From Carex sylvatica (taxonomy: Eukaryota; Streptophyta; Magnoliopsida; Poales; Cyperaceae), in the NCBI GenBank assembly GCA_964058845.1, contig CAXKVR010000273.1, positions 124,001 to 188,000 of the forward strand: 64,000 nucleotides of DNA. Reading direction: 5' to 3'. A program made the translations under genes and the position numbers. The notes beneath the pieces are model-generated. The model had not been told where the DNA came from. It worked only from the letters and a program-made list of their open reading frames with translations, and did no database searches. This document shows, piece after piece, positions 6,184-63,251 of this stretch (position 1 is the first letter of the stretch; the number at the start of each line of letters is the position of its first letter).

Positions 6184-7387
6184 TGTGATAGGGGTGAAAT
6201 AAGTCGTTATTTTTCCTATCACTTAACCTAAAATATTGTTATTTATTGAGTTACAATTACTTATTTTTCATAGAATCAGATTTTTTTTTTTTTTTTGTTA
6301 TTTTACTTGATCTTAGATAATTGCATATTTTCGACGATATTCAAGCTAAAACAGGCATAAAACGAAGCAATTATGACATTCAGCCTCAGCCGTGCGGGTG
6401 CCCTCATCTGCATGCTACCCAGAAGAGTTGTCGTAGGAAGTTATGCCCTCCATGAGGTTTACACCCAAACTGCATGCGACTCAGACATCTGCACGCAGAA
6501 ACTACAAGAACAACGATTACAACTCTAACTTGCCAACCAAGACCTATATATGCATTTGGACACTTGGAGAACATATCTCTGGACAACTATTCATCATTCC
6601 ATACCAGAGAGCATAGAGAATTAGGTTAGAACTAGGGTTTTCTCTCATGAAGGCTATGCAAAGGATAAATTAGTAAAATAGAGAAGCCTCTATTAGAAGA
6701 AAATAAAGAGGCAAGATCTGAAGATGGTGTGCATGAGAGAAGAGACAGCATATGTGTTATCCTTCTATGTCTCTCTATTGCTTCCTTTCTTTATGTCTTT
6801 TGTCTCTTTTGTTGTTGAACCAACTATGAGCGGATAAGTAACATTTTTCTAGGGTGAAGACATGTAATCTTGAATTCTTATGAGTTTAATCTAAGGTTTA
6901 TTTATATTTATTATTTGCTTTATGATTTGAATTCTTTCTAAGATTTACTCTTTGTATTTTTACTTGACTTAGTTCATAACAAACTTCGTATACACATTGA
7001 GATGCGCACTCCATGGTATGCATAAGAGGTTGACCAATAGGTTAAGGATATTATTATCTTAGATCCAAGTAGGAGAGACGTAATTATTGACACTTGTGAT
7101 CTGAACTTCAGTTAGAAATCTATTAGGATATAGTCTAGTAGATGAACATCACACTCTATAACTAATAGTGGAGTGATCTTAATTGTTATTATTATGAAAG
7201 GCATATAGGAATGACGTATTTATGAACTTGACCATTTTCTAATATTAGTAATTATGACTTATCATTAATCTTCATACAATTGTTTAGGTACCTTTACTAG
7301 TCCTACTCAATTAGCGTGTTATAACATTTTAGTGACTAACACTTGAACAGGATTAGCAACTCTCGGATTGCATTTGATACCAGTACA
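6184..7387 (+). repeat. LTR-like block, copy 1
   Basis: It starts TGTGATAGGGG immediately after the purine tract AAGCTTGGGGG and ends ...GATACCAGTACA, giving TGT...ACA borders. The last 630 bases are clearly repeated at 29,790-30,433: shared words include GAAGACATGTAATCTTGAAT and TCTGAACTTCAGTTAGA, and both end GATACCAG. Similarity continues about 20 bases past the proposed end (GTTCTGATCA), so the right border may be misplaced. On the minus strand the end reads TGGTATCA, which resembles an initiator-tRNA primer site, so the opposite orientation cannot be excluded. Confidence 0.5.
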
Positions 7388-7399
7388 TGGCGTATGTTG

Positions 7400-10175
7400 T
7401 TCTGATCAGTGCAAGGATCATACATGAAAATTGGCCCATGTTCGGTCCACCTATCCTAAAGGATATTCTGAATTTTTTTCAATCCTGGATAGATGCCCAA
7501 AGCTTACGCCAATCAAATTTAATTCTCATCACAAATATTGATGAAGCAGTTAAGGTCACTGATTTTAGTCCTATCTCAGTGTGTAATGTGATCTACAAAA
7601 TTATTTCTAAAATCTTGACTTTGAGATTGAAACCATACATCGGCCTTTGTATTTTGAGGGCTCGAAGTGCATTTTTGCCGGGTCGTGAAATCTCAAAAAA
7701 TGTTATTCTCCTTAGGGAAGTACTCCACTCTTTTTGTTTGCCAGCATACAAGAACAAAGAGTTATATTTGAAAGTTGATTTATCAAAAGCTTTCGATGGA
7801 ATGAATTGAGATTTTATAAGTTCTCTAATGACAATTTATAACTTTCCTCTAAATTTGCGGATTGGATTATGGTATGCATTAAGTCAACTCAATTTAGAAT
7901 TACGTTAAATGGTAAAGGAGATGGTTTTCTAAATTTGAATAATGGTTTGAGGCAAGGTTGTTCATTATCACTATATATTTTTATTTTGGGAATGGATGTG
8001 CTCTCGAGGAGTCTAGCATACTGTGTGCAAACAAGGGTTCTGAGAAGGGGTCCGCATTGCTCCATCGGCTTAGCCTCTAACATATTGTTTATATGCGGAT
8101 GATTTATTAATTTTTGGTGCAGTTAGGAATGAAGAGGCTCAATAGATAATGATTTCCCTTCAAGAATTTTCTGAGGTTTCGGGTCAGATTGTGGGGATCC
8201 AAAAAAGTAGTATCTGGTATAGCATAATCACACCTACTTTGGTTAGAGAAGAGATCTCCAACTTGTTCCTGATCCCGCCAAATGCAATGTTTTCCTCTTA
8301 TTTGGGTGCTCCAATTGAAACAAAAAGACAGTCTTTTGATTTTTTTTGATTGAAAAATTTGAGGCGAAACTCCAGATGTGAAAAAGTGCCCTTCTTTCTC
8401 ATGCGGGCCGATTAGTGCTGGTTTGGACTGTTCTTTAAGCTATGCCCATTTATTACATGGCCATGTGTCGTATTTCCAATTCAGTGATAAATGGAATAAC
8501 CTATATTAATCGAAGATTTTTCTGGAGAAAAGTAAAGAAGCGGAGGTATTTAGCATATGTCGCTTGGGATAAAATCACGATGCCAGTAGATATGGGAGCC
8601 TTGATGTGCGTGATCTTCAAGTAATGAATGAAAGCCTTCTAATAAAATTTTTGGGGTATTTAGCTTCAGGTTCTGAGGCACAGTGGGTAAGGATAGTAAA
8701 AGCCAAGTATTTTTCAAAAAGTGAATTATGGCATAGTAAAAGAGATTATAATTGCATGGGTTTTGGATAAGCATGATGCGCCTTAGAAGTATCCTAGAGC
8801 CATGGGTACAGTGGAGGATAGGCAATGGTGAAAGCTGTGGAGTCTTCGCTCAACCGTGGTTTCAAGGGGCATTAGAATCAAAACCAACAGACAATACACA
8901 ACGACATTTGGTTGTCAAAGATCTCCTTGATTTTCAAAGTGAAAACTGGGATGTCGACCGCCTCACTCTACTGTTCAGCTATGTGAAGTGCATGGAAATC
9001 ATTTCAAATATTGATCCTCCATTGCAAGAGGACTCTGAAGACAAGCTAATTTTCAAAAAGAGAAGTACTGGCATGTATTTGGTGAAGTTGGGATATTTTC
9101 TATTGAGAAATCAGCAAGCAAGTCCAAGCACTGGAACCAAAGAGTTATGGGAAGCTGTATGGCATAAGGTGGAAGTGCTACTTAGAATCAGGTTATTTGT
9201 TTGGAAATTAATTCACAAGCCCCTCCCTCTAGCAAAAATAATGCATCGTTGGTTCCCAAAGCAAAGCCCGTTATGTGTTACATGTAGTTGTGAAGAGGAA
9301 GACGCCATTCATCTCCTACACCTATGTCCATTCTATAGGGCGTGCATGTTAGCAAGACCGCTAAGCATGAGAACTTACAAATTTCGGGGTGATTTTGTGC
9401 AAGTGATATAGACTATTTCGGAAGCCCTTGATGAAAATTAGTGGCAACTATACGTTAATTCTGCATGGGCCCTTTGGAGATGTCGAAATGATTGAACTTA
9501 TGGAGGTAAACAACTAGATTTCTCCCAGTTCATGAGTTATCTCAAATTCATAAATATGAAATCAAAAATTGGTGCTACACGTAAGTTTTGTGTGATGCCA
9601 GGTAGGACATAAGGCGAAAGCTCAATGTCAGAGGTGCAACAGGATTATTGTTGCTTTTTGAACGGTTCATGGTCAAAGGGGTGGTCAGAAGGGATTGGAA
9701 TAGTCATGTGGCATAAGGAGGAAATGATTATTTATGAATCTAAGGCGGTCAAGGGTTGCTGCCCTTTACAAATAGAAGCCATGGCTCTCAAAGAATCTCT
9801 TCTACTGACGATCAAACTGAGAATAGATACATATGCTTTCCTTTCATATTATCTCACCCTGATAAAAGCTGTCTCAAGTCCACAACCTCCAGCTGATGCG
9901 GATTGGCGTGCATTTGAAGAAGTGCTAGAAAGTTGGAAGCTGCTACAAGAAAATCCTTCCTTTTCATGTACTCATATACAAAGAGGTCAGAATGATATGA
10001 CTGATATGTTAGCAAAACAAGGGAGGCTTAACAATTGGGATTGCTCGGGTTATATTTTTCTTTTTTTAGATAGCAATGTAACAAAAGTCAGGGTGGACAA
10101 AAGAAGAGCTGCTAAGATGATAGTTGTAATGTGATGTAATGACCTACGGGTTTATGATAACAAAAAAAATTATAG
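7400..10175 (+). pseudogene. Dead LINE (L1-type non-LTR retrotransposon): reverse transcriptase, zf-RVT, RNase H
   Basis: Pieces in shifting frames spell out a plant LINE ORF2. Reverse transcriptase blocks: VTDFSPISVCNVIYKIISKI at 7555, FLPGREISKN and DLSKAFDGMN to 7809, LRQGCSLSLYIFI near 7950, and the catalytic YADD box at 8092-8103. The zinc-binding zf-RVT domain lies at 9100-9350 (CVTCSCEEEDAIHLLHLCPF). An RNase H-like domain follows at 9625-10,134; its first acidic residue is Asn (LNGSW instead of DGSW). AFDGMN is followed by TGA where the family has Trp. Endonuclease and ORF1 are absent, so the copy is 5'-truncated. A short A run at about 10,160-10,170 may be the tail. Confidence 0.85.
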
Positions 10176-11907: not shown

Positions 11908-11910
<3 letters not shown>

Positions 11911-12330
11911 GTTGGCTACTATGCTTATATAAGCATATTCACACATATGCTTATAACTCATTTTTGTGTTTCCAATGTCTAAATAGTCGATCTGAACCGT
12001 TAGATGTGATCTCTATATTGAAATGTGCTTGGAGACCAAATTTTACATTTTTCTGAATTTTTTTACTATTTATTAAGCCAATTTGAAAATTTCTGATCCA
12101 ACGGTGGCTTCTGATTTTACTGTTTTGTTAAGCCACCGTTGGATCAGCGATTTTCAAAGTGACTTAATAAATAGTAAAAAAATTCAGAAAAATATAAAAT
12201 TTGGTCTCCAAGAACATATAAATATGGAGAACAAGATAAACGATTCGGATCGACCGTTAGGATTTTGAAAAGTTAAATATTGAGCCGTAGCACCGTAGCT
12301 CTCTATGCAACCCATAGCACCCTAGCCTTA
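11908..12330. mobile_element. Fold-back element FB2, chimeric outer arms
   Basis: The left end is GAGGTTGGCTACTATGC, as in FB6 and FB9. The core and loop are the A1 kind: GGAGACCAAATTTTACAT, then GATCCAACGGTGGCTTC and AAGCCACCGTTGGATCAG. The right half pairs with the left only through the core. Beyond about 12,255 it changes to an unrelated arm (GAGCCGTAGCACCGTAGC ... CACCCTAGCC). The right border is uncertain. Confidence 0.75.
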
Positions 12331-12351: not shown

Positions 12352-12727
12352 ACTTCGTGAATTAAACGGGTTGTTTTAATTCGCGCTCATATCTCTAGTT
12401 TCGAAGTCCAAATAGCCGATCCAAATCGTTAGATGTTTAATTTATATTAAAATGTGTTTGGAGACCAAATTTTATATTTTTTGGAATTTTTTTACTATTT
12501 ATTAAGATAGTTTGAAAATCGTTGTTTTTATTAAAATTTTGCACCATTAAAAAACAGCGATTTTCAAACTATCTTAATAAATAGTAAACAAATTCCAAAA
12601 AATATAAAATTTCGTCTTCAAGCATATTTTAATATAGATTAAACATCTAATGGTTTGAATCGTCTATTTGGACTTCGAAACTAGAGAAATGAGCGCGAAT
12701 TAAAACAATCCGTTTAATTCGCAAAGT
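12352..12727. mobile_element. Fold-back element FB3 (type A core, loop A2)
   Basis: The outer arms match each other through GAATTAAACGGGTTGTTTTA / CGCGCTCATATCTCTAG. The inner core is GGAGACCAAATTTTATAT ... TTTACTATTTATTAAGATAG. The loop pairs GTTTGAAAATCGTTGTTTTT with its partner AAAAAACAGCGATTTTCAAAC. It lies between FB2 and FB4 with only a few bases between units. Confidence 0.8.
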
Positions 12728-13081
12728 AAACGATCTATTTTAATTTGTGCTCATATCTCTAGTTTCGAAGTCCAAATAGCCAATCCAAACTGTTAGATGT
12801 TTAATCTATATTAAAATGTGCTTGGAACCCAAGTTTTACATTTTTTGGAATTTTTTTACTATTTATTAAGATGGTTTAAAAATCGATGTTTTTATTAAAA
12901 TTCTGCATCATTAAAAAACAGCAATATTCAAACCATCTTAATAAATAGTAAAAAAATTCCAAAAAATGTAAAATTTGGTCTCTAAGCACATCTTAATATA
13001 TAGATCGCATCTAACTGTTCGGATTAACTGTTTTGACTTTGAAAACAGAGATAAAAGATAGGGTGCATTTGAACGTTCCTC
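12728..13081. mobile_element. Fold-back element FB4, chimeric outer arms
   Basis: The left arm is the FB3 kind (TTTTAATTTGTGCTCATATC, TAGTTTCGAAGTCC), and the core and A2 loop are like FB3. The right outer arm is different (AGATAGGGTGCATTTGAACG, then TTCCTC) and ends next to a TA/GA microsatellite. It cannot form a hairpin beyond the core. Confidence 0.75.
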
Positions 13082-13539: not shown

Positions 13540-13577
13540 TATATATACATACATACATACATATATATATATATATA

Positions 13578-14010
13578 GGTTGGCTACTATGCTTATATAA
13601 GCATATCTCCACATATACTTATAACTCATTTTTGTGTTTCCAATGTCCAAATGGTCGATGTGATCTCTATATTGAAATGTGCTTGGAGACCAAATTTTAT
13701 ATTTTTCTGAATTTTTTACTATTTATTAAGCCAATTTGAAAATCTCTGATCCAACGGTGGCTTCTGATTTTATTGTTTTGTTAAGCCACCGTTGGATCAG
13801 CGATTTTCAAAGTGGCTTAATAAATAGTACAAAAATTCAGAAAAATATAAAATTTGGTCTTCAAACACATTTCAATATAGAGATCACATCTAACGGTTCA
13901 GATTGACTATTTGGACATTGAAAACACAAAAATGAGTTATAAGCATATGTGGGGATATGCTTATATAAGCATATGTGGGGATATGCTTATATAAGCATAA
14001 TAGCCAACCT
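13578..14010. mobile_element. Fold-back element FB6 (GGTTGGCTACTATGC arms, loop A1)
   Basis: Complete hairpin. The left end GGTTGGCTACTATGCTTAT is complementary to the right end ATAAGCATAATAGCCAACC. The right arm contains an extra copy of the unit AAGCATATGTGGGGATATGC. Core and loop are nearly identical to FB2 and FB9. Flanks are CATA/TA repeats on the left and a GT repeat on the right. Confidence 0.85.
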
Positions 14011-17000
14011 GTATGTGTGTGTGTCGCCAAAATATTGTCCTTATTTTACAGAGAAATTTAGATATATATCTATCATCACTTTTTGAATTAGATATTTCTT
14101 CATCAAAACTTCAAAACTAATTATTTTCTCATTTAAATGTAACTATATCATAAATATACCTATTACTTATTTAAATCAATTAAAATACTAATTGATAAAA
14201 AAAAAAAAAAAGTTCGACGGATATGCCCATTTTGATTCAATCACTGTTATGTTTCTCATTAAATATGACAGATGGGACTCCATTTTTATCTATCACTGCA
14301 AAACGACCCCCTTGTCCCGATTCATCTCTTCCTCTCAATATTTATCTTCCTAAACTTGAAGTTCATGAACCTCTTGAATTGGCTTCCTGGCTCATGGAAC
14401 ATCGAGCTCATCCTGAATGGGATCTCCTTTTTCCTAATTAGTCGCCAAAGAAAAAAAAAAAGAATAGACATTTGCAAATGAGAAGAAGGAAAAGAGAACG
14501 GCAGCGAAAATTTCGAGTTTTAGTGAAAATCTGAACGTTTCAATCGACTTTGTCCTCTCCTGAAAAAAAATTTTGCCCCCCTCCGAATGTTCGATTTGTA
14601 ATTTAGGTTAAATTTAGAGTTAAAATTAAAATAAATTTCTTAATTATGATTGGTAATTAGAATTATATGTTAGAGAATAATCAGAAATCACAAGTCAGAG
14701 TATTGAAAAGTATAAGTTAAAGTATTATTTTTTTATCGAGTATCTAATTAGTTAATGGGTTTGAACTGATTAGCTATTTAAACTCAATTTGATTTTTTTT
14801 TTTGCTCCCCCAATGAAAATTATGGATCCGCCCCTGTTTGTTTGGGCAACACATCATTTAAAAATAATTTTACTTAATAATAAAATGGTTTTTTATTTAA
14901 ACATAAGGGCATAATTGTCATTTTATTAATTATTAATATTAATCAATGTTTTTAATTGTTTAATTGAGTAATGAGTATATTTATAATATAGTTATATTTT
15001 GATGGACAAATATTTAATTAAAGAAGTTATAATGGGTATATATCTAATTAAAATTTTCTATTTTCTATTTGTTGAAAAAATATTTTTTTTCTCGGTTGTA
15101 GCAAAATCACTCTAATAGAGCATTATTGTCAGATGCCCAAATTTTGTATGAGGAATTCTGAAAATGTGATTGGTGTTGAAAATTTTGAAATATTTATACA
15201 TAATTAGCACATGATAATGTACTATTGTAGGACGAACTCGGAACGATTTTGATTTGAATGATTGTTAGCATGCCCCTCCTAATGTTTAGGTCAGATTAAT
15301 TAATTGGCCCAAAACAACTAGTAACTTCCATCAAAATAAATAAACACAATAATAAAGTTTTAAATATAAATGATATATACAAATATATATTAAATTAGGG
15401 TTGGAACCCACAATTCTGTGTCAGATCCTCTAAGATCAAATTAGACTGCACTCTTTGCTATAGAGGAAAAAAAAACAGTTATCAACAAAATTTTATATTT
15501 AATCATCATATGTAGATCCTCAATATTTATAAATATAACAATACATTTCACAAGTTATTTTAATTTGTTTTTAAAATCTACAAACTTAAATACATTAATT
15601 TATAGATCATGACACATAATATATTTATGCACATACATACGTCTAAATTGGTTAATTTATTTGAGAAATATACAACCAGTAGCTAACTTATCAGAATTAA
15701 AATATTTGTGTTCTCTACAATTTAGATGTATACAAAAGTGTATCGAATCTAACATAATATAAAAACATTTCTATTATTAATCAAGTAATTAATGTTAACA
15801 AAATTATATTTAAGAAATATACATTTATAATTCTAGTTTTGAATTTAAAAAAAATTAGTCCTTATGTATACACACTCTCTGTGATCACACTTATATATGC
15901 GTGCCTCTCCCTTCCAAACTCATGCTCTTAATATTCCGAAGCTATTAATTTGGGGGCCATGTGATCAAAAGGGAAAGAGAAACAGTTAATTTGGCCGCTT
16001 TAATCTGACGAGACCAGCCGTCAAGAGCAATTATATATTCTATGAAACAGTTCCTACAAGGACCAGGCTAAAGGAAGGGCGAGTGAGCTAGGTATACTTC
16101 TGCAAATAAGAAGCCCCTTAATTGTGTAATTAATTAATTTAACATACTATTTATTGTACGTAACGTAATTATGGCCAACGATATATGCAACTTTGATGAG
16201 ACTTGTCAATTAATGCTTAATGTACAAGTCTGATAGAGATGTACTTTTTGTCCGCGCATACATAAATTAAATACCTTGACAGTTGATTTGATTCTACTCA
16301 GATATATAAATTTAATAATATTAAACAATAACTTGTGTTTTTATCATGCCGTTATTTTTTTGATAAATTTAAGAATACTTAAATTCAAATAAGAAAATAA
16401 AACCTTTAAATATGATTCATATCATATATATCCATTATGTACATATAAAAAATTACCTCATTTCAGATTCATTTTGATGGATATTAAAAGCATAAGAAAA
16501 TAATATCATAAGTATTAATATTAGTAGAGTTCTTGAAATGCATAATCTGTTAAAAAAAAAAAAACTAAAATGTAACATTGTTTTGTATGTACATTAAAAA
16601 GTGATATAAATGAAAGTTGATGAACCTCATTTTCTTGTACTGTTTTGCCCAAAATTACTTAAATTATTTTTCAGTATTATACACCAATCACCAACATGTT
16701 TTAGGAATGAACCATTTCACAACATAGCTAGCTTAAGCCATGTCACTACAAAAAGATTGCTAGTCACTGGCTAGATCAATTGACCTGTTGCCACAGGTCA
16801 GCATGCACACGTGTTAATTGTTTTTTATTCATATTTCTATGAGCAGGAGTAAAAAGAAAATTTGGGCCCTAGTGCAATTAATGATGAATTGATGATTGAC
16901 ATCAATTGGAACCATTTACCAAACAGAATTTAGAGGTCAGTTCTAATATATTTTGCTTCATTTAGCAAACCGAATCAAATCAATACTGATATATATGCAT

Positions 17001-18415: not shown

Positions 18416-19979
18416 ATGGGGCAGCACTCATGCTGTAATCAACAGAAGGTGAAAAGAGGCTTATGGTCACCTGAGGAGGATGAGAAACTGATTAAATACA
18501 TCACAACCCATGGCTATGGCTGCTGGAGTGAGGTCCCAGAGAAAGCTGGTAATTAATTAGTAATTTTTCTATTCGTTCCTCCAAAATGTAAATAATTGTT
18601 TTACCTATTTTGTTATGCTAATTTTCAATCTTTCTAAGCTAACTCAGCGAAGCAAATTCCCTGCAAGGCGAGGCAAACATTTAGCAAGCAATGATAAAAT
18701 TATTGTTACAAAAAAAAAATACTTAAAAGTGAATCTTAAAATACATGTGGCTTGTAATCGTGACACAATCAAGATATCCATCCAATTATACTAGCTAGTT
18801 TGATGAATATCTGTCACATAGAGATTGCTACATTTTGATCGACAGCTTGATTTATTTGAGTTTCATTTCGCTTTTTTTTTCTCTTTCTGAAATGTGTGAA
18901 ATACATATAGGTCTTCAAAGATGTGGCAAAAGCTGTCGTTTAAGGTGGATAAATTATCTGAGACCTGACATCAGGCGTGGGAGATTCAGTGCTGAGGAGG
19001 AGAAGTTGATCATAAACCTTCATGCCATCGTTGGAAATAGGTTAATCATCAAGACCCTTTTTTTGAATTTATTGTCATCTTATTTGTTCTCTTTAGATTC
19101 TTCTGGTGTCGCTTATGTTTGAATGACAGTGAATCCTTGCTTTTATTTTTTGTAACTTGGTAGCCACTACCAAGCAATTTCAAAAAAAAAGACAGTGAAT
19201 CCTTGCCAATTTTGGTTTATAATTAATTTTTTATCTTAAATGATAAAACTGGATGCATTTGTAACGGCAATTGAATTCACCATAAAGCTTATATCGATTA
19301 TTCACCGATGAACTTCTGCAGATGGGCCCATATCGCAAGCCATTTACCTGGTCGTACAGACAATGAGATAAAGAACTATTGGAACTCATGGATAAAAAAG
19401 AAGATCAAGAAATCCAGCACGCAACCATCGGTAACTCCTACTCAGGACCTATTCCAATCAGGCTTCAACCCGATCGACCAACTCGATGCTATAGTTAACC
19501 AAAACCTAGCTCAACAAAACCTAACACCTAAACCAGCTTCTGGCTCGATCTTTCTCTCTCAGGCACCATTCTTCTCTTTTGATGCTAGTCTTGGAAGTAG
19601 CTGCGACAGCAACAATGCAAGTGGTCACACAAGAGATCATGATCTAGCACAAGATGTGCAAGCCTTAACTAGTTGCAAGATTTGGGGCAACAGCATTCCA
19701 CCTGCTGCCAATTTTGCAAGTGCAATTGATCCAAATTACTTGCCTCCCTTGGTTGATAGTATGAGCATTGGTCATTTGGTTACCATGGAAGAAGGGGAGA
19801 TGAGTGTTGGAGACTGCTACGAGAAGCATCAAAATTCAACTGACTGGGGGGACCCACATAATTACAACGGGCTTCTTATGTGGGACCAAATACAAGGTGA
19901 CCTTGAAGAAGAAGAAATTCAAATACAAGGTGCGTCTACCTTAGACACTACATTAACCTCATTCCCTAATTCCCTATGA
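18416..19979 (+). CDS. MYB26: R2R3-MYB transcription factor, MYB26/MYB67 clade
   Basis: Three exons, 18,416-18,548, 18,911-19,040 and 19,322-19,979, join into a 306-residue protein. The introns fall at the two classic R2R3-MYB positions (after the first base of Gly45 and inside Arg88). R2 has Trp17, Trp37 and Trp57; R3 has Phe70, Trp89 and Trp108. The N-terminus [20 protein letters not shown] and the R3 text [14 protein letters not shown] / [20 protein letters not shown] match, from memory, the MYB26/MYB67 group. Arabidopsis MYB26 (MALE STERILE 35) switches on secondary wall thickening in the anther endothecium. The C-terminal 190 residues are variable and end in an acidic patch ([11 protein letters not shown]), a plausible activation region. 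Nuclear DNA binding is expected. The gene appears intact and stands alone between non-coding stretches. Confidence 0.93.
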
Positions 19980-32280: not shown

Positions 32281-32633
32281 CAGGTGTTTTTAAGTTCACC
32301 AAGCCCCTTGGTGAATTCAAGTCTAAAATCCATCAAATCGACTTCAAATGACGAATTAGAACCATTAAAACCCGCCTACCTTACGCGTGATGCGTCTACA
32401 TGTGAAAATTTTAAACATTAGAATTAATTTAGTTTAAAGTCAAGCGGTCAAATTTACAAGGTTAATAAATAATTTTAATGCATTCATTTTTTTAATGTAC
32501 TTTGACCACTTGACTTAATGCAAACTTAATTTCAAAATTATTATTTTTACATGTAGACACATCACTCGTAAAGTAGGCAGGTTTCAACAGTTCGAATTAG
32601 TCATTTAAAGCTTATTCAATGAGCTTTATATAT
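32281..32633. mobile_element. Type B fold-back element, outer arm missing on the right
   Basis: The arms pair through GACTTCAAATGACGAATT / AATTAGTCATTTAAAGC and through AAAGTCAAGCGGTCAAA / TTTGACCACTTGACTTA. The same core words occur in the elements at 32,638 and 50,391. The left outer arm (AAGTTCACCAAGCCCCTTGG) has no partner on the right. Confidence 0.6.
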
Positions 32634-32637
32634 ATAT

Positions 32638-33459
32638 GAGCAAAGCTAGGGTGTGATATGCTCACCAAGAGGGTTCGGTGAGCACAACTCTAAAAGTATA
32701 TCGATTCGGCTTCAAATGACGAATCCAAACCGTTGAAATCCATGTACTTCATGAGTGATGCATGTACATGTAAAATTTTGAAAGTTTCGAATTTATTTGT
32801 TACAAGGTCAAGTGACCAAAGAAATGTTGAAAAATAAATATACAAAACAAGTTATAAAATAATTTATAAAAGATTCATTTCTTGAGACTTGAAGCAAATG
32901 AATTCAAAACTTTTAAAATTTATATATAGAGGAGGGTTCAAATGCCTTCATTTTTTGTGCCTCCACTATGCCTTCATTTTTAAAAACTTTAATAATTCAA
33001 AATGTAAAACTTAAAAGTCAAGATAAACCCATTGGATATGATCTACGTCATTTTATTAATGCACATGTAAAAAATTATGACATTTCAATTTTATTTTGAT
33101 TGTCATCAAGAGCTTGTAAAAAACACATTAATGTGGATGATTTCTAGACGTTGATTTTTGAACTTATTGATTCACATAAAAATAAAATTGAAATGTGATA
33201 ATTTTTTATGAGCACATAGAGAAAATAACATAGATCACATCTAACGGTTTTATTTTGACTTTTAAGTTTTAAATTTTGAGTTATTAAAGTTTTAAAAAAT
33301 AAAAACATGGTGGAGGAACAAAAAATGAAGGCATTTGAACCCTCCTCACACACACACACACACACACATATATAAATTAATTAATAAAATACAAAAATGA
33401 TCGTAAAATTATAATTAATAAAAGGTTTGGTGAGCACATCACACCCTAACTTTGCGCTC
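32638..33459. mobile_element. Fold-back element FB13 (type B), interrupted by FB14
   Basis: The outer ends are complementary: GAGCAAAGCTAGGGTGTGA at the left, and TCACACCCTAACTTTGCGCTC (less one base) at the right. A shared GGTGAGCAC word sits inside both. The left part carries the type B core GTCAAGTGACCAAAG. A complete second element is inserted at 32,929-33,347. Confidence 0.75.
32929..33347. mobile_element. Fold-back element FB14 (type C core), nested in FB13
   Basis: The left end GAGGAGGGTTCAAATGCC is the exact complement of the right end GGCATTTGAACCCTCCTC. The arms continue through TTCATTTTTTGTGCCTCCAC and the core AAACTTAAAAGTCAAGATAA. It is nearly the same element as the one at 40,999. 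A CA repeat follows its right end. Confidence 0.85.
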
Positions 33460-40315: not shown

Positions 40316-40998
40316 AGAGATGTGTAGCAAAATATTTTCTGTAGGCAACAGCACAAGTTGATGCGGGGTACCTGATTTCTGTTGCAAAAGCATATTTTCC
40401 TACTTATGTGATATCTATGTCGGTCAAGTATGTTAAGCAAATATCACAAGACAGTTGTAACTTGGAAGTGCAATGCAAAGAAGAATCCTACCTACTTCAG
40501 CTGATTAAGATATCGCTCTACGTATGGGATATGCATATTTAAATTGACTAAATGGTATCAACCAAATGTTAAAACAGGCAATTTTTGTACATGCTCCCTT
40601 TGTGCACTTTGAAATTCGTGCAGTGAAATATGCCGGGTTCTCTTTTTGCACATTTAAATTCGTCCCAATGCTCTAGGCGAGCACTGGAGATCGGCCTCTT
40701 GGGTAGCAAAGGAAAGGAAGAATTTAGAATATGTACAGTAGTACCTGCAAGTCAGAACCCATACAAGATGTCTTCTTGCATGTTTCGTACTAGATACAGA
40801 ATGCAAAAATCTATAAACACATAAATTAGGCAGTCAGCAATTTACGAATACGATATTACATTTGTTTTTTGAATTATCATTCTTCCAAACCATCTATGCA
40901 AAACAGTTGAGTTAGCTAAAATGGTACGACAGTGGCACAGTGCTACTTCTGAAAAACATGGTAAAACCAAAACATTTCATAATGCCGTATTTTTATAA
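40316..40998. other. 3' flank of the long TRAIP gene
   Basis: Probably the 3' untranslated region and spacer. The ORF at 40,630-40,824 shows no motif. No further gene is seen. Confidence 0.45.
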
Positions 40999-41417
40999 GA
41001 GGAGGGTTGAAATGCCTTCATTTTTTGTACCTCCATTGTGTCTTCATTTTTTAAAACTTTAATAACTCAAAATGTAAAACTTAAAAGTCAAAATAAAACT
41101 GTTAGATATGATCTATGTTATTTTCTCTCTGAATTTATAAAAAATTATTACATTTCAATTTTATTTTTATGTGAATTAATAGGTTCAAATATCAACGTCT
41201 AGAAATCATCCACCTTAGTGCGTTTTTTACAAGTCTTTAATGACAATCAAAATAAACTTGAAATGTTATAATTTTTTATATGTGCATAGATAAAATGATG
41301 TAGATCATATCAAATGGTTTTATTTTGACTTTTAAGTTTTAAATTTTGAATTATTAAAGTTTTTAAAAATAGAGGTATAGTGGAGACACAAAAAATGAAG
41401 GCATTTGAACCCTTCTC
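40999..41417. mobile_element. Fold-back element FB15 (type C core) with a 9-bp flanking repeat
   Basis: The left end GAGGAGGGTTGAAATGCC and right end GGCATTTGAACCCTTCTC pair with two mismatches. The arms continue through TTCATTTTTTGTACCTCCA and AAAACTTAAAAGTCAAAATA. The nine bases TTTTTATAA lie immediately outside both ends, which looks like a target-site duplication. Very close relative of FB14. Confidence 0.85.
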
Positions 41418-41516
41418 TTTTTATAAATCAATTTTGTTAGTACAATCTATCTTTTTTTTCTGGAAATTTTTTGTTAGTACAATCAGACTTGATTTATCCT
41501 CTGCAAAGTTCAAAAT

Positions 41517-47928: not shown

Positions 47929-48624
47929 ATAATTCCTTATTTATTACTTTGTTGTTGATAAAATGCAGGGTTATCTTTTGCATAGCACCAAGCTAATAAA
48001 ATGCAAATATTCTCTGTACAGTGGTTGCAGAGAATTCTTTTTGTTTCCTAGCATAAAGATTGCGAATATATAGAGCTGTTCAATAAAGGGTCTTTATTTT
48101 CCATGTTTCTTCTTCTTCTACATTTAGGTCCTTCCGAGCTACCTTATTTAAAATTCCATTTTTCTTTTTATCTGCTTGTAAAATTAGAATTCCATATCGG
48201 AAAGTGCAAGGCCTTTTCCGCTTACCAATTTGCTGACTGATATGTTCAATGTGCTCATAATAAGCCTGGCTTTATGTCTTAAACTCTTAGTTGACTGATC
48301 TGTATTAAAATTTTAGAAGAAAGATTAAAGAGCGCTAAGCCGTTTTATGGTTGGAATGGTAGAAACGAGAAGAGAAGATCGAGAGAATCTTTGAAAAAAA
48401 TTGAAGCATTGGACCACTTTTTTCAAAACTACTGATTTGCCAAACATTTGTCTTGGTTAATGCAGTTTAACTGGAGTACAAATGCCCTTCGATCGAACTT
48501 GTGACTGCCTCAATGTAAGGGTCTTCAGTCTTCACAATATTGCCTTGCATGAGTGATAAATATTTTGAAATATATATATATATTTTTTAGAATTTTTTTG
48601 AAATATATATATATAGAGAGAGAG
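47929..48624. other. 3' flank of the reductase gene
   Basis: Probably the 3' untranslated region, followed by AT-rich spacer and a TA run that meets the next fold-back element. No gene is supported. Confidence 0.45.
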
Positions 48625-49034
48625 AGATTAATATGCTTTCGGTAGCATATGGGCCGAAGTGCTACCGGTTCAAATTTGAAATTTTAAAATTCAAAAAGTC
48701 GATTTGAACCGTTCATCTTGTTCTCCATATTAATATGTGTTTGGAGACCAAATTTTACATTTTTATGAATTTTTTTACTATTTATTAAGCCATTTTGAAA
48801 ATTGCTAATCCAACGGTGGCTTAACAAAACAGTAAAATCAGAAGCCACCGTTGGACCAGTGATTTTCAAAGTGGCTTAATAAATAGTAAAAAAATTCAGA
48901 AAAATGTAAAATTTGGTCTCCAAGCACATATTAATATGGAGAACAAGATAAACAGTTCAGATCAATTTTTTGGATTTTGAAATTTCAAATTTGGACCGGT
49001 AGCACTTCGGCCCATATGCTACCGAAAGCATATT

Positions 49035-49040
<6 letters not shown>
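48625..49040. mobile_element. Fold-back element FB7 (type A core, loop A1 inverted)
   Basis: The outer arm AATATGCTTTCGGTAGCATA with GGGCCGAAGTGCTACCGG pairs with CCGGTAGCACTTCGGCCCAT on the right. The core is GGAGACCAAATTTTACAT ... TTTACTATTTATTAAGCCA. The loop reads GGTGGCTTAACAAAACAGTA, the reverse orientation of the loop in FB2, FB6 and FB9. Flanked by GA and CT microsatellites. Confidence 0.85.
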
Positions 49041-49077
<37 letters not shown>

Positions 49078-49080
49078 ATA

Positions 49081-49500
49081 GGCTAATAAACAATTGATTG
49101 TTCCTAGCCTCCCATCCAATGAAATTGTTTTCTAATTTTTAAAGTCCAAATGATCGATCCAAACCATTAGATGTGATCTCCATATTCATATTAAAATATG
49201 CTAGGAGACCAAATTTTAAATTTTTTGAAATTTGTTTACTATTTATTAAGCCACTTTGAAAATCGCTGATCCAACGGTAACTTCTGATTTTACTGTTTGG
49301 TTAAACCATCGTTGGATCAGCGATTTTCAAAGTGGCTTAATAAATAATAAAAAAATTCCAAAAAATGTAAAATTTGGTCTCCTAGTACATTTTAATATGG
49401 AGATCACATCTAACAGTTTGGATCGATCATTTGAACTTTAAAAATTGAAAAACGACTTAGTTGTACGGGAGGCTAGGAACAATCGATTGTTTATTAGCCT
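49081..49500. mobile_element. Fold-back element FB8 (type A core, loop A1, own outer arm)
   Basis: The left end GGCTAATAAACAATTGATTG with TTCCTAGCCTCCC pairs with the right end GGGAGGCTAGGAACAATCG and TTGTTTATTAGCC. The core is GGAGACCAAATTTTAAAT. The loop carries GATCCAACGGTAACTTCTG and its partner. Flanked by CT repeats on both sides. Confidence 0.85.
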
Positions 49501-49559
49501 CCCTCTCTCTCTCTCCCTCTCTCCCTCTCTCTCTCTATCTATATATATATATATATATA

Positions 49560-49980
49560 GGTTGGCTACTATGCTTATATAAGCATATCCCTATATATGC
49601 TTGTAACTCATTTTTGTGTTTTCAATGTCCAAATGGTCGATCTGAACCGTTAGATGTGATCTATATATTGAAATGTGCTTGGAGACCAAATTTTACATTT
49701 TTCTGAATTTGTTTACTATTTATTAAGCCAATTTGAAAATTTCTGATCCAACGGTGGCTTCTGATTTTACTGTTTTGTTAAGCCACCGTTGGATCAGCGA
49801 TTTTCAAAGTGACTTAATAAATAGTAAAAAAATTCAGAAAAATATAAAATTTGGTCTCCAAGAACATATTAATATGGAGAACAATATGAACGGTTCCGAT
49901 CGACCATTTGGACATTGAAAACACAAAAATAAGTTATAAGTATATGTGGGGATATGCTTATATAAGCATAGTAGCCAACC
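49560..49980. mobile_element. Fold-back element FB9 (GGTTGGCTACTATGC arms, loop A1)
   Basis: Complete hairpin with ends GGTTGGCTACTATGCTTAT and ATAAGCATAGTAGCCAACC. Core and loop nearly match FB2 and FB6 base for base. A TA repeat lies on both sides; the right one separates it from FB10 by about 20 bases. Confidence 0.88.
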
Positions 49981-50001
49981 TCTATATATATATATATATA
50001 A

Positions 50002-50375
50002 GAGATCAAGTTACAATATTTTTTGAGTTACAACAAGTTACAACAAGCATTTTCTACATTTTCAAAGTCCAAATTGTCGATCCAAACCGTTAGATGTGAT
50101 CTCTATAATAAAATGTGCTTGGAGATCAAATTTATATTTTTTGAAATTTTTTTACTATTTATTAAGATGGGTACAAAAACTAGTCAAATTCAGACCATTG
50201 AATTTTATACCCATCTTAATAAATAGTAAAAAAATTCCAAAAAATGTAAAATTTGGTCTCCAAGCACATTTTATTGTGGAGATCACATCGAACGGTTTGG
50301 ATCGATGATTTGGACTTTAAAAATGTAGAAAATGCTTGTTGTAACTCAAAAAATGTTGTAACTTGATCCCTCCTC
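50002..50375. mobile_element. Fold-back element FB10 (GATCAAGTTACAAC arms, loop A3)
   Basis: The left arm GATCAAGTTACAATATTTTT pairs with the right end AAAATGTTGTAACTTGATCC followed by CTCCTC. The core is GGAGATCAAATTTATAT ... TTTACTATTTATTAAGATGG. The loop contains GTCAAATTCAGACCATTGAA. It shares arms and loop with the elements at 62,065 and 62,872. Confidence 0.87.
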
Positions 50376-50390
50376 ATATATATATATATA

Positions 50391-50795
50391 GTACGGCTAA
50401 CGCGTTTCTACTAGTATATCAACAATATGCTTCCGGCCTCTAAAATCTATTGAATTGAGTTCAAATAAAAAATCCGAACCGTTCAAACCAATTTTCTTAA
50501 CGAGAGCTTTGTTTCCATATTAAAAAATTTAAGTTTCAAATTTATTTACTATCAAGTCAAGTGGTCAAAAAATGATCAAAATAGTGCATTAAAATGCACA
50601 CAAAATCCTTCATAATTTGACCGCTTGACTTGATAGTAAATAAATTTGAAATATAATTTTTTTTTACATGAAAACGAAGCTCTCGTTAAAGACATTAGTT
50701 TGAACGGTTTAGATTTGTCATTTGAAGCCGATTCGATAGATTTTGAAGGCCGGAAGCATATTGTTGATATACTAGAGGAAGCGCGTTAGCCGTAC
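50391..50795. mobile_element. Fold-back element FB11 (type B core, GTACGGCTAACGCG arms)
   Basis: The left end GTACGGCTAACGCGTTTC and right end GCGCGTTAGCCGTAC pair. The arms continue through TATATCAACAATATGCTTCC and its partner, then the inner core ATCAAGTCAAGTGGTCAAA / TTTGACCGCTTGACTTGAT. Flanked by TA repeats. Confidence 0.85.
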
Positions 50796-50808
50796 TCTAT
50801 ATATATGA

Positions 50809-50953
50809 GTACGGCTAACGCGCTTCCACTAGTATATCAACAATATGCTTCTGGTCTCTAAAATTTATTGAATCGGATTCAAATGAAAAATTCGAACTGT
50901 TTAAACTAATCTTATTAACGAAAGCTTTGTTTTCATATTAAAAAATTTAAGTT
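50809..50953. mobile_element. Truncated copy of FB11 (left half only)
   Basis: Starts GTACGGCTAACGCGCTTCC, follows FB11 with few changes through GAAAGCTTTGTTTTCATATT and ends abruptly at AAATTTAAGTT, before the hairpin core. Only 13 bases separate it from FB11. Confidence 0.8.
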
Positions 50954-52640: not shown

Positions 52641-54656
52641 TCACCGAAGCCACCGCCTAAGGTCAGTAGTAGAAGAAGGCGAAATCTCTCCACCAAGGCT
52701 CTCATTACATGAAGAAACATTTGACCTAAGTTCCGGCACATATCGGCCGGCGACGCTTTTGAAGCTTGGACTTCTTAAGTTTTGTGAATAGCCATAAGGG
52801 TCAAGTGGGACCGGAAACGAGAGCCTCTTCTTAGCTGAACCAGTGGCCCCACTTTTCTCTCGCTCGGGTGTTGAAGGGCGTTGCCTTGGTGCACTCTGCG
52901 ACCTTAGCCTGGCTTTAGCCGACTCTGTCGCCGCCATGTAATTCGGCAGGTTGTGGACCCCACCGGCCACATTAGTGCATCTTGGGCTTGCAGATCGCAC
53001 CTGTGATGCCCCACAATTCAAGGTCAAAAATGTAATTTTAGCTAGATAGACAATAGCCAATTACGAATGGTACAAAACAGAATTTATGTAGATAGGGTTC
53101 TTGCCATGTGTTTAAATTGTTTTCGTTCAGACTTTTGTAGAGAAGTAGGGTCTTAGATAAATACAAAATAAGACAGGATAATTTATCACACTGTTATAGC
53201 CACCATTCATTGTTGGGTTGAACAGCTTATTAAATCATCAAGAACAAAACTCCAAACTCTGTTACCTGCACCGGTGGCCGTGCTTTCGAAGGGGACGGTG
53301 TGACCGGGGACCGCTGATGGAGGGGTGACTGAGGAGGGTGGTACAAGTTTTGCTGTGCCTGGACTTGCTGTAAATGACTATGCGACCTTCTCGGTGTAGA
53401 ATAAGAGAAAGGCCGTGCTGTGTCAATCTCAACTGTCTTTACTGGGTCCCGATGGTCAATGGAGGCCCTTGCTCTGCTACTCATCCGGTTGTCAAATGAG
53501 GATCTCGACGCAATCCAACGGTCCATCCAACGTGGCTGATTCGGCTCAGATGTAGATATAGCTTCAGAATCTGTTTCTTCCTCCATTGAAGCCGATGGGT
53601 TCTTCCAGATCTGCAAAACATGTCCAAATTTAAGGATTTATGAGCTTTCTTCATTCAATGAAAAAAATTGGTCAAATTTATTTACTTTGAAAGTAAAGAA
53701 TGAAAAATACCTGATTAGAGAATGCATGAGAGAGTGATTTTTCTCGCTTCAATGCAGCCTCTTTTCTTGTCTGAAGTAGCGCTTGAATATCTTCTATTGT
53801 GCGCGGCCGTTCATCCCAGTCATCGGCCACAGTACTCCCATCTCTTGACTGATCCTTTACAAAATAAAATGAATCCAGTTTATTCATATTTTCTAAAAGT
53901 AATGGGACAAGCATAAATCTTTGTTTATAACAAGCATAGAATACTTGTTATAAAACCTTGTCTATCAATAGTAGTCGCTTATTAAATGACTGTTTTGTGT
54001 TGTTCCAAAAATATTGATCAGGCAAATAACATCTGCACTGCAGCTGGTAACTATTCATACCATGGAACGACGCTCAGCATAGACTTGAAGATATTTGGAG
54101 TCCCAAAAAGAGTTGTCAGTGTCACAACTGTAAGTTGACTTGCCACTACAACAGCCAACCGTCTCTTGCGAGAGTCTGATGCGTTGGTCCCGCACCCGAG
54201 CCTGAACTCTCACCAGGGCTTGCATGCACCTAAGAGTCATGTTTGCTTGCTTTCGTACATTGTGACCTCTGACCAAGGCTTGTAGCTTCACCAACCCTTT
54301 GAGCGCTTTTAGTGCTCTTCTTGCCTGATAATAAATAAGCACATTAAATGAAAACATTTTTGGTACATGATTTTGTTTAATTTAAGACCCAATAGTCTCA
54401 TTTCAAACAAGGTTTCATTGAATCCTTAACTGACTCCTTGTATCAAATACTCAAACATTTCATATAATTTTTTTTTTCATTCAATCAAGTTAATTTCCAA
54501 CTTTTCTTACACTACTTTAAGAACAGAAATTTTAAATTAAACAATGAGTTGTTTTATAAAGAATAGTTGGTTGTCCTAAATTTTTTTTTTTGCTTTCCTG
54601 ACAGCCCGTGGGCCTCCTAAAATTGCTAGAAGAGAGAAAATAATTGCTTTGCCAAG

Positions 54657-62064: not shown

Positions 62065-62454
62065 GAGGAGGAATCAAGTTACAACATTTTTTGAGTTACA
62101 ACAAGTTACAACAAGCATTTTCTACATTTTTAAAGTTCAAATCATCGATCCAAAACGTTAGATGTGATATCCACAATAAAATGTACTTGGAGACCAAATT
62201 TTACATTTTTTGGAATTTTTTTACTATTTATTAAGATGGGTATAAAATTCAATGGTCTGAATTTGACTAGTTTTTGTACCCATCTTAATAAATAGTAAAA
62301 AAATTCCAAAAAATGTAAAATTTGATCTCCAAGCACATTTTATTGTAGAGATCACATCTAACGGTTTAGATCGATGATTTGGACTTTAAAAATATAAACA
62401 ATACTTGTTGTAACTTATTATAACTCAAAAAATATTTTAACTTAATCACTCCTC
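62065..62454. mobile_element. Fold-back element FB16 (GATCAAGTTACAAC-type arms, loop A3)
   Basis: Starts GAGGAGGAATCAAGTTACAA and ends with the degraded partner TTTTAACTTAATCACTCCTC. The core is GGAGACCAAATTTTACAT ... TTTACTATTTATTAAGATGG. The loop AATGGTCTGAATTTGACTAG is the reverse orientation of that in FB10. The flanking nine bases do not match each other (CTCTTGTAT and TATTTATAT). Confidence 0.85.
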
Positions 62455-62871: not shown

Positions 62872-63251
62872 GAGGAGAGATCAAGTTACAATATTTTTTG
62901 AGTTACAATAAGTTATAACAATTATTTTTTACATTTTTAAAGTCCAAATCATCGATCCAAACTGTTAGATATGATCTCGACAATAAAATGTGCTTGGAGA
63001 CCAAATTTTATATTTTTTGCAATTTTTTTACTATTTATTAAGATGGGTATAAAATTCAATGGTCTGAATTTGACTATTTTTTGTACCTATCTTAATAAAT
63101 AGTAAAAAAATTTTAAAAAATGTAAAATTTGGTCTCCAAGCACATTTTATTGTAGAGATCGCATCTAACGGTTTGGATCGACGATTTGAACTTTAAAAAT
63201 ATAAAAAATTCTTGTTATAACTCAAAATATGTTGTAACTTGATTCCTCCTC
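62872..63251. mobile_element. Fold-back element FB17 (GATCAAGTTACAA-type arms, loop A3), 9-bp flanking repeat
   Basis: The left end GAGGAGAGATCAAGTTACAA pairs with the right end TTGTAACTTGATTCCTCCTC. Core and A3 loop match FB16. ATATTATAT is present directly outside both ends, which looks like a 9-bp target duplication although the site is AT-only. Confidence 0.87.

What the first reader, a model, noticed from the sequence alone, without database searches (positions are those of the whole stretch)
48625..50795. Fold-back elements built from interchangeable modules: constant core, variable outer arm, variable loop
FB7, FB8, FB9 and FB10 sit side by side and share an almost identical inner arm (GGAGACCAAATTTTACAT ... 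TTTACTATTTATTAAG). The outer arms are unrelated (AATATGCTTTCGG, GGCTAATAAACAAT, GGTTGGCTACTATGC, GATCAAGTTACAAC). Loop A1 (GATCCAACGGTGGC) occurs with three of these outer arms; loop A3 occurs only with the fourth. FB1, FB3, FB5, FB6, FB16 and FB17 elsewhere obey the same plan. Ordinary MITE families keep their terminal repeats and vary inside; here the ends vary and a middle zone is kept. That suggests the core rather than the terminus is under constraint, or that new ends are acquired repeatedly. The known facts are that MITEs and fold-back elements exist; the modular reading is inference.
Basis: partly seen in the sequence, partly recalled or inferred. Interest (0 to 1): 0.75.

Follow-up and report, generated by a model that had tools for sequence, protein, structure and literature searches.

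The report
Hairpin transposons with variable end cassettes
A plant genome holds many small hairpin-shaped jumping genes that settle in simple repeats; their tips and inner parts are alike, a short stretch behind each tip differs from family to family, and two of the families share, and have probably swapped, their inner parts.

Summary
FB7-FB10 are real: ~370-430 bp fold-back elements side by side in (TA)n/(GA)n repeats, members of an abundant clan (one FB9 end motif: 1,135 hits in 64 Mb, reversed control 0). With 9-10 bp target duplications outside repeats they resemble the known microsatellite-seeking Mutator-type elements SaTar, MuTAnT and Ac-mMITE.

FB7, FB8 and FB9 outer arms align without gaps at 48-53%; the hypervariable part is ~30 nt behind the tip.

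Modularity holds for one pair. FB7- and FB9-type families differ at the outer arm (Fst 0.74) but barely in zone 4 and core (0.03, 0.02). FB8- and FB10-type families differ from FB9 in every zone except parts of the FB8 loop stem. Ends nearly always match: 344 FB9/FB9, 46 FB7/FB7, 2 mixed; 0 of 7 testable mixed elements have matching flanks, 55 of 98 others do. Best reading: recombination and conversion exchange interiors, as in Drosophila Galileo, while a fast-changing end cassette marks each family. No transposase source was found; one candidate proved a nested insertion.

The parts
48620..49044 (.). FB7: F5-type outer arms, loop A1; both ends in GA/CT repeats, so the exact tip is uncertain by a few bases
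49075..49505 (.). FB8: F7-type outer arms (dyad AACAATCGATTGTT), A1-type loop with changes, own core lineage
49558..49982 (.). FB9: F13-type outer arms (TATGCTTATATAAGCATA dyad), loop A1; left arm zone 4 haplotype A, right arm B-like
50002..50375 (.). FB10: F8-type outer arms (direct repeats of AGTTACAACA), loop A3; left tip degraded
50389..50797 (.). FB11: tip GAGTACGGCTA with a different core (TTTCAAATTTATTTACTATCAAGTCAAG); followed from ~50808 by a half element of the same type
   Evidence: not found by the core pattern
48742..48788 (+). FB7 left core (zone 5)
49680..49726 (+). FB9 left core (zone 5)
11908..12330 (.). mixed-end element: FB9-type left outer arm, F6-type right outer arm, loop A1 (right end approximate)
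12724..13080 (.). mixed-end element: F1-type left arm fused to the neighbouring element, F12-type right arm (ends approximate)
13576..14011 (.). FB9-type element; right outer arm carries a duplicated dyad segment
1769..2144 (.). F9-type element (GAGGAGGGATCGGATGAC ends), same core
62065..62454 (.). FB10-type (F8) element
62872..63251 (.). FB10-type (F8) element

Best explanation
Non-autonomous Mutator-type hairpins that accumulate in microsatellites. Each arm reads from outside: a common tip of ~11 nt; a fast-changing ~30-nt cassette (dyad or tandem repeat) that differs between families but is nearly always the same on both arms; zone 3 (~24 nt); zone 4 (28 nt, a few haplotypes); a 47-nt core; the loop. 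Shown: this anatomy, 9-10 bp duplications, matching of the two ends, sharing of zone 4 and core between FB7- and FB9-type families and not with FB8 or FB10, excess likeness of the two arms of one element in the two large families, no matching flanks at mixed-end elements. Inferred: the families descend from one hairpin; the cassette diverged because it contains what the transposase reads; zone 4 and core pass between FB7 and FB9 families by ectopic recombination and gene conversion, which also runs between the arms of a hairpin; neighbours in arrays recombine into mixed-end elements, mostly dead ends.
For: Fst by zone F13-F5 0.74, 0.42, 0.03, 0.02; nearest neighbours of the same family 1.00 outer, 0.93 zone 3, 0.67 zone 4, 0.60 core, 0.52 shuffled. 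Both zone-4 haplotypes occur in both families (F13 57 B, 40 A; F5 42 B, 21 A). Zone 4 by loop side in 44 F13 elements: A/B 10, B/B 21, A/A 7, B/A 1, x/A 1, 4 undetermined. Arms of one element are more alike than arms of different elements in F13 outer, zones 3 and 4 and core, and F5 outer, zones 3 and 4 and stem. 344 and 46 matched, 2 mixed; about 83 of 392 expected if ends paired at random. Flanks match in 55 of 98 concordant and 0 of 7 mixed elements (Fisher p 0.004). Dyad halves covary in F5 (26 aa, 13 bb, 4 cc, 1 ab; 44 of 63 arms parsed) and both arms agree in 10 of 10 elements that could be read.
Against: No transposase with these ends was found, so the role of the cassette is untested. 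Arm likeness fails in F5 core (1144 of 2000 permutations as low) and is reversed in the F13 stem (1999 of 2000); smaller families show it only in parts; most private variants sit on one arm only. The F13-F5 loop stem is less shared (Fst 0.14-0.19 by side), and NN fractions for zone 4 and core still exceed the shuffled maximum of 0.58. 9 of 16 mixed elements could not be flank-tested, and one of the 7 tested (L064:594) adjoins another element, so 0 of 6 is the safe figure. 23 of 98 concordant elements also have unlike repeats on the two sides.
Confidence: 0.62

Rival explanations
1. Simple divergence: separate families from one ancestor, the core slow and the outer arm fast; no exchange of parts.
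For: FB8-, F11- and FB10-type families differ from FB9 in outer arm, zones 3 and 4 and core; outer arms of several families align in register; outer arm and loop are mostly tied.
Against: FB7 and FB9 outer arms are 0.52 apart but their cores 0.074 (within 0.064 and 0.082) and both share two very different zone-4 haplotypes; within-family diversity gives no tenfold rate difference between zones.
Confidence: 0.22
2. Repeated capture of ready-made ends: each outer cassette was taken from a different autonomous element onto a passenger hairpin.
For: One core with nine outer clusters of six or more arms; the middle ~32 nt reach z>=3 in only 3 of 36 family pairs; mixed-end elements exist.
Against: Common tip and ungapped scaffold in several families; 8 MULE loci looked at show none of these ends; the one apparent donor was a nested insertion.
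Confidence: 0.12
3. Assembly artefact: mixed ends and unlike arms come from misjoined repeats.
For: The elements sit in microsatellite arrays and the genome held is 950 contigs.
Against: Unlike zone-4 arms have a consistent orientation in F13 elements (10 A/B, 1 B/A) and elements are only ~400 bp. Mixed ends themselves were not checked on reads.
Confidence: 0.04

Closest known systems
SaTar elements of guayule, rice, sorghum and citrus (PMC5907723; parts 1-3 of 6 and found passages)
   Same: Small non-autonomous MULEs in microsatellites, 9-10 bp duplications elsewhere, arrays of different families, fused neighbours by deletion.
   Different: Described as never nested, while here an FB9-type element sits in an FB9 outer arm with a 9-bp duplication (L036). 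A shared core with different ends is not described in what I read.
MuTAnT, Medicago (PMC4486113; parts 1-2 of 4)
   Same: Fold-back MULE in (TA)n, 9-nt duplications; end mask GGGGTTTGCTAGAACA resembles GAGGTTGGCTACTATG at the tip.
   Different: One family with two subfamilies and a known autonomous element; no set of different end cassettes in what I read.
Ac-mMITE-1/-2, pineapple (PMC8449440; part 1 of 6 and found passages)
   Same: Very abundant, TA and GA/CT flanks, 9/10-bp duplications, clusters, no autonomous element found.
   Different: The two families share their distal ends, the opposite of the pattern stressed here.
Galileo, Drosophila mojavensis (PMC3573991; found passages only)
   Same: Fold-back-like; 12 chimeric copies with two different ends and non-matching flanks; copies with ends of one subfamily and the interior of another, ascribed to ectopic recombination and conversion.
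   Different: P superfamily with 7-bp duplications, 170 copies studied, not microsatellite-seeking.

Membership tests
microsatellite-associated MULE MITE (SaTar/MuTAnT/Ac-mMITE kind) | flanked by TA or GA/CT microsatellites | tested here: met
   of 98 concordant elements with both tips found, 58 TA/TA, 23 TA on one side and GA/CT on the other, 5 GA/CT on both, 12 mixed classes
microsatellite-associated MULE MITE (SaTar/MuTAnT/Ac-mMITE kind) | 9-10 bp target duplication outside microsatellites | tested here: met
   L019, L020, L026, L032, L065 (FB9-type) and L060 (FB7-type) read by eye; FB8 and FB10 types had no clear case outside repeats
microsatellite-associated MULE MITE (SaTar/MuTAnT/Ac-mMITE kind) | long inverted repeats, no coding capacity | tested here: met
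   hairpins of ~370-430 bp; no ORF of 100 aa or more overlaps 48620-50797
microsatellite-associated MULE MITE (SaTar/MuTAnT/Ac-mMITE kind) | ends like those of an autonomous MULE | tested here: inconclusive
   8 MULE loci, mostly one side only, without these ends; C9 candidate was nested
SaTar | arrays without nesting | tested here: not met
   nested FB9-type element in an FB9 arm, L036; not a defining feature of the wider kind
Galileo (analogy, not membership) | chimeric copies with two end types and no matching duplication | tested here: met
   0 of 7 mixed elements (6 if the doubtful L064:594 is dropped), 55 of 98 others
Galileo (analogy, not membership) | P-superfamily transposase, 7-bp duplication | tested here: not met
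   duplications here are 9-10 bp; transposase unknown

The most novel reading that the evidence does not exclude
The ~30-nt cassette behind the tip is an exchangeable address label, a dyad or triple site read by one of several related transposases. One hairpin interior rides on many labels, and a family arises when the label changes on both arms together by hairpin-templated conversion, so the element changes its transposase while keeping its interior.
Probability: 0.2. Interest if true: 0.75.

Novelty: new variant of a known kind. Interest (0 to 1): 0.48.

Why it matters
How non-autonomous elements keep or change the transposase that moves them is open. Here one genome holds nine outer clusters of six or more arms on one hairpin interior, with exact counts of matched and mixed ends for two of them, so partner switching versus plain divergence becomes testable once the transposases are found. 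It also warns that repeat annotation by ends would split, and by core would merge, the same elements.

Tried and rejected
Autonomous partner: convergent FB9 tips 9.9 kb apart around a MULE frame on C9 looked like an autonomous FB9-ended element. Rejected: copies of that MULE elsewhere start at CCGCAATTTTTATTCATAGG-like ends with their own 9-10 bp duplications (L096, L097, L099, L103), and the C9 copy lies inside an FB9 outer arm with a 9-bp duplication. Eight other MULE loci, 3-6 kb each and mostly one side of the gene, showed none of these ends; this does not exclude an autonomous partner among the 150 scored hits.

Loop of FB8 hardly diverged from FB9 (Fst 0.04): withdrawn, it came largely from pooling the two loop sides (0.47 on side 1, 0.11 on side 2, 7 and 6 FB8-type arms).

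Outer arms replaced outright: weakened by the register test, but remote homology of the middle ~32 nt is unproven (3 of 36 pairs with z>=3). Consensus rows of F6, F11, F9 and F3 are blurred by length variants.

Share of mixed elements in the sample (16 of 135; 10 of 65 in by-catch) includes truncated and fused arms and is no rate. One search timed out; redone with BLAST. A protein search points to a flowering plant but gives no species.

Full report
WHAT IS THERE. The window is G000:C273:124001-188000 in a 64-Mb set of 950 contigs. Named relatives of its DUF4005 frame are flowering-plant proteins. Inverted repeats confirm FB7-FB11 side by side at 48.62-50.80 kb and others at 1.8, 11.9-14.0, 32.3-33.3, 41.0 and 62.1-63.3 kb. 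The core pattern finds 24 arms = 12 elements.

SAMPLE. Core and four outer arms were searched in the whole genome; per search only 40 of 184 to 2,247 first-look candidates were scored. 68 loci were cut by search (core 8, FB9 arm 30, FB7 arm 30) and 20 short regions were fetched for FB8 and FB10 arms. Window plus L001-L088 hold 398 core-bearing arms, 184 pairs, some counted twice because loci overlap. 306 arms are non-redundant with enough flank, 299 have zone 3, 298 were clustered; 135 elements have both arms typed. The sample is biased to F13 (FB9) and F5 (FB7).

ANATOMY. Zone 3 to core is 28 nt in 286 of 299 arms. Direct duplications of 9-10 bp outside repeats fix the termini of FB9-type and FB7-type elements: GAGGTTGGCTACTATGC and GAGAGTGACTAATATGC; those of FB8 (GAG[AG]TAGGCTAATAAACA) and FB10 (GAGGAGGGATCAAG) follow from alignment only. 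GAG-NNN-G[GA]CTA is exact in 144 of 298 arms (F13 72 of 98, F5 38 of 63, F7 17 of 23, F1 7 of 16, F11 5 of 18, F6 2 of 16, F3 2 of 6) and GAGGAGGG[AT]TC in 24 (F8 16 of 29, F9 7 of 14, F12 1 of 4); the rest have neither exactly. The cassette is a significant dyad in F13, F5, F7 and F1 (0-8 of 300 shuffles as high) and a significant direct repeat in F8, F13 and F6; F11, F9 and F3 are not significant.

ARE THE OUTER ARMS UNRELATED? There are 19 clusters, 12 of them with two or more arms. On consensus F5-F13 agree at 0.53 without gaps (z 5.1; other shifts at most 0.33), F5-F7 0.52, F7-F13 0.48, F7-F8 0.48, F1-F13 0.48; F8, F9, F11, F6 and F3 against F13 do not stand out. By block z>=3 in 5 of 36 pairs for the tip, 3 of 36 for the middle, 13 of 36 for the inner 20 nt.

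DO THE PARTS DISAGREE? Fst by zone, outer / zone 3 / zone 4 / core / stem: F13-F5 0.74 / 0.42 / 0.03 / 0.02 / 0.07; F13-F7 0.81 / 0.54 / 0.38 / 0.45 / 0.04; F13-F11 0.75 / 0.54 / 0.28 / 0.33 / 0.07; F13-F8 0.71 / 0.52 / 0.41 / 0.34 / 0.66. With loop sides separated F13-F5 zone 4 and core are 0.00-0.04, stem 0.14-0.19; F13-F7 stem is 0.47 and 0.11. Nearest neighbours in F13+F5 belong to the same family in 1.00 (outer), 0.93 (zone 3), 0.67 (zone 4), 0.60 (core) and 0.71 (stem), shuffled mean 0.52, maximum 0.58 for zone 4 and core. So FB7 and FB9 families almost share one pool of zone 4 and core; FB8, F11 and FB10 do not share it with FB9. F6 carries loop clusters 5, 24, 22, 20 and 10, F11 clusters 5, 24 and 22.

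MATCHED AND MIXED ENDS. Exact patterns genome-wide: F13/F13 344, F5/F5 46, F13/F5 2, reversed controls 0; random pairing of these ends would give about 83 mixed of 392. Two of the 46 carry F6-type arms by their letters (C19:418368 on one side, C48:294076 on both). These counts miss variant ends; L064:2219, a variant FB9/FB7 mix, is not among the 2. In the sample 119 of 135 elements are concordant and 16 mixed. Flanks were testable in 105: 55 of 98 concordant and 0 of 7 mixed have 88% or more identity over 9-10 nt, and 6 of the 7 have TA on one side and GA/CT on the other, against 23 of 98. One of the 7, L064:594, adjoins another element. Galileo chimeras also lack matching duplications (PMC3573991, passages).

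ARM-TO-ARM LIKENESS. Zone 4 by loop side in F13: A/B 10, B/B 21, A/A 7, B/A 1, x/A 1, undetermined 4; in F5 B/B 10, A/A 6, undetermined 7. Arms of one element are closer than arms of different elements in F13 outer, zones 3, 4 and core and F5 outer, zones 3, 4 and stem, not in F5 core, and the reverse holds in the F13 stem; other families show it only in parts. I read this as conversion between arms plus common descent; the two were not separated.

WHAT MOVES THEM. PF10551 gives 150 scored hits of 305 candidates, several with many like copies. No examined MULE has these ends, and the C9 candidate is nested. Assignment to Mutator rests on duplication length, tip and likeness to MuTAnT and SaTar, not on a transposase.

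NOVELTY. Microsatellite-seeking MULE MITEs in arrays are known, chimeric fold-back elements are known in Galileo. In the parts and passages read, and in the listings, I saw no plant families described with a common interior, different end cassettes and shared cores. I file it as a new variant of a known kind.

Noticed in passing
L036 ~1501-1921: FB9-type element inserted in the outer arm of another FB9-type element with a 9-bp duplication (TAAGCATAG), unlike the 'never nested' rule printed for SaTar arrays.
   Followed up: partly
L092/L093 (C9:207980-218060): Mutator element with a 944-aa open frame inserted in an FB9 outer arm; its ends begin CCGCAATTT and carry arrays of GGGACGCCAT repeats; short relatives L096-L106 share these ends.
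   Followed up: partly
L089, L090, L091: Multi-copy MULEs with long frames and subterminal palindromes that differ between families (e.g. GACCGCCTAAAAATTAGGCGGTC, CCGGTTAACGGTTAACCGG).
   Followed up: no
window 50389-50945 and 32300-32900: Further fold-back elements with a second, different core; FB11 has the same kind of tip, so the plan extends beyond one core.
   Followed up: partly
window 32929-33347 and 40997-41419: Two related fold-back elements with GAGGAGGGTTCAAATGCC-like ends and a third interior.
   Followed up: no
window 7387-10134: Pieces of a reverse-transcriptase element (RVT_1, zf-RVT, RVT_3 frames).
   Followed up: no
window 52641-53060: DUF4005 frame, 94% identical to an unnamed protein P0001; named relatives are flowering plants.
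   Followed up: partly
window 19308-19979: Myb-like frame.
   Followed up: no
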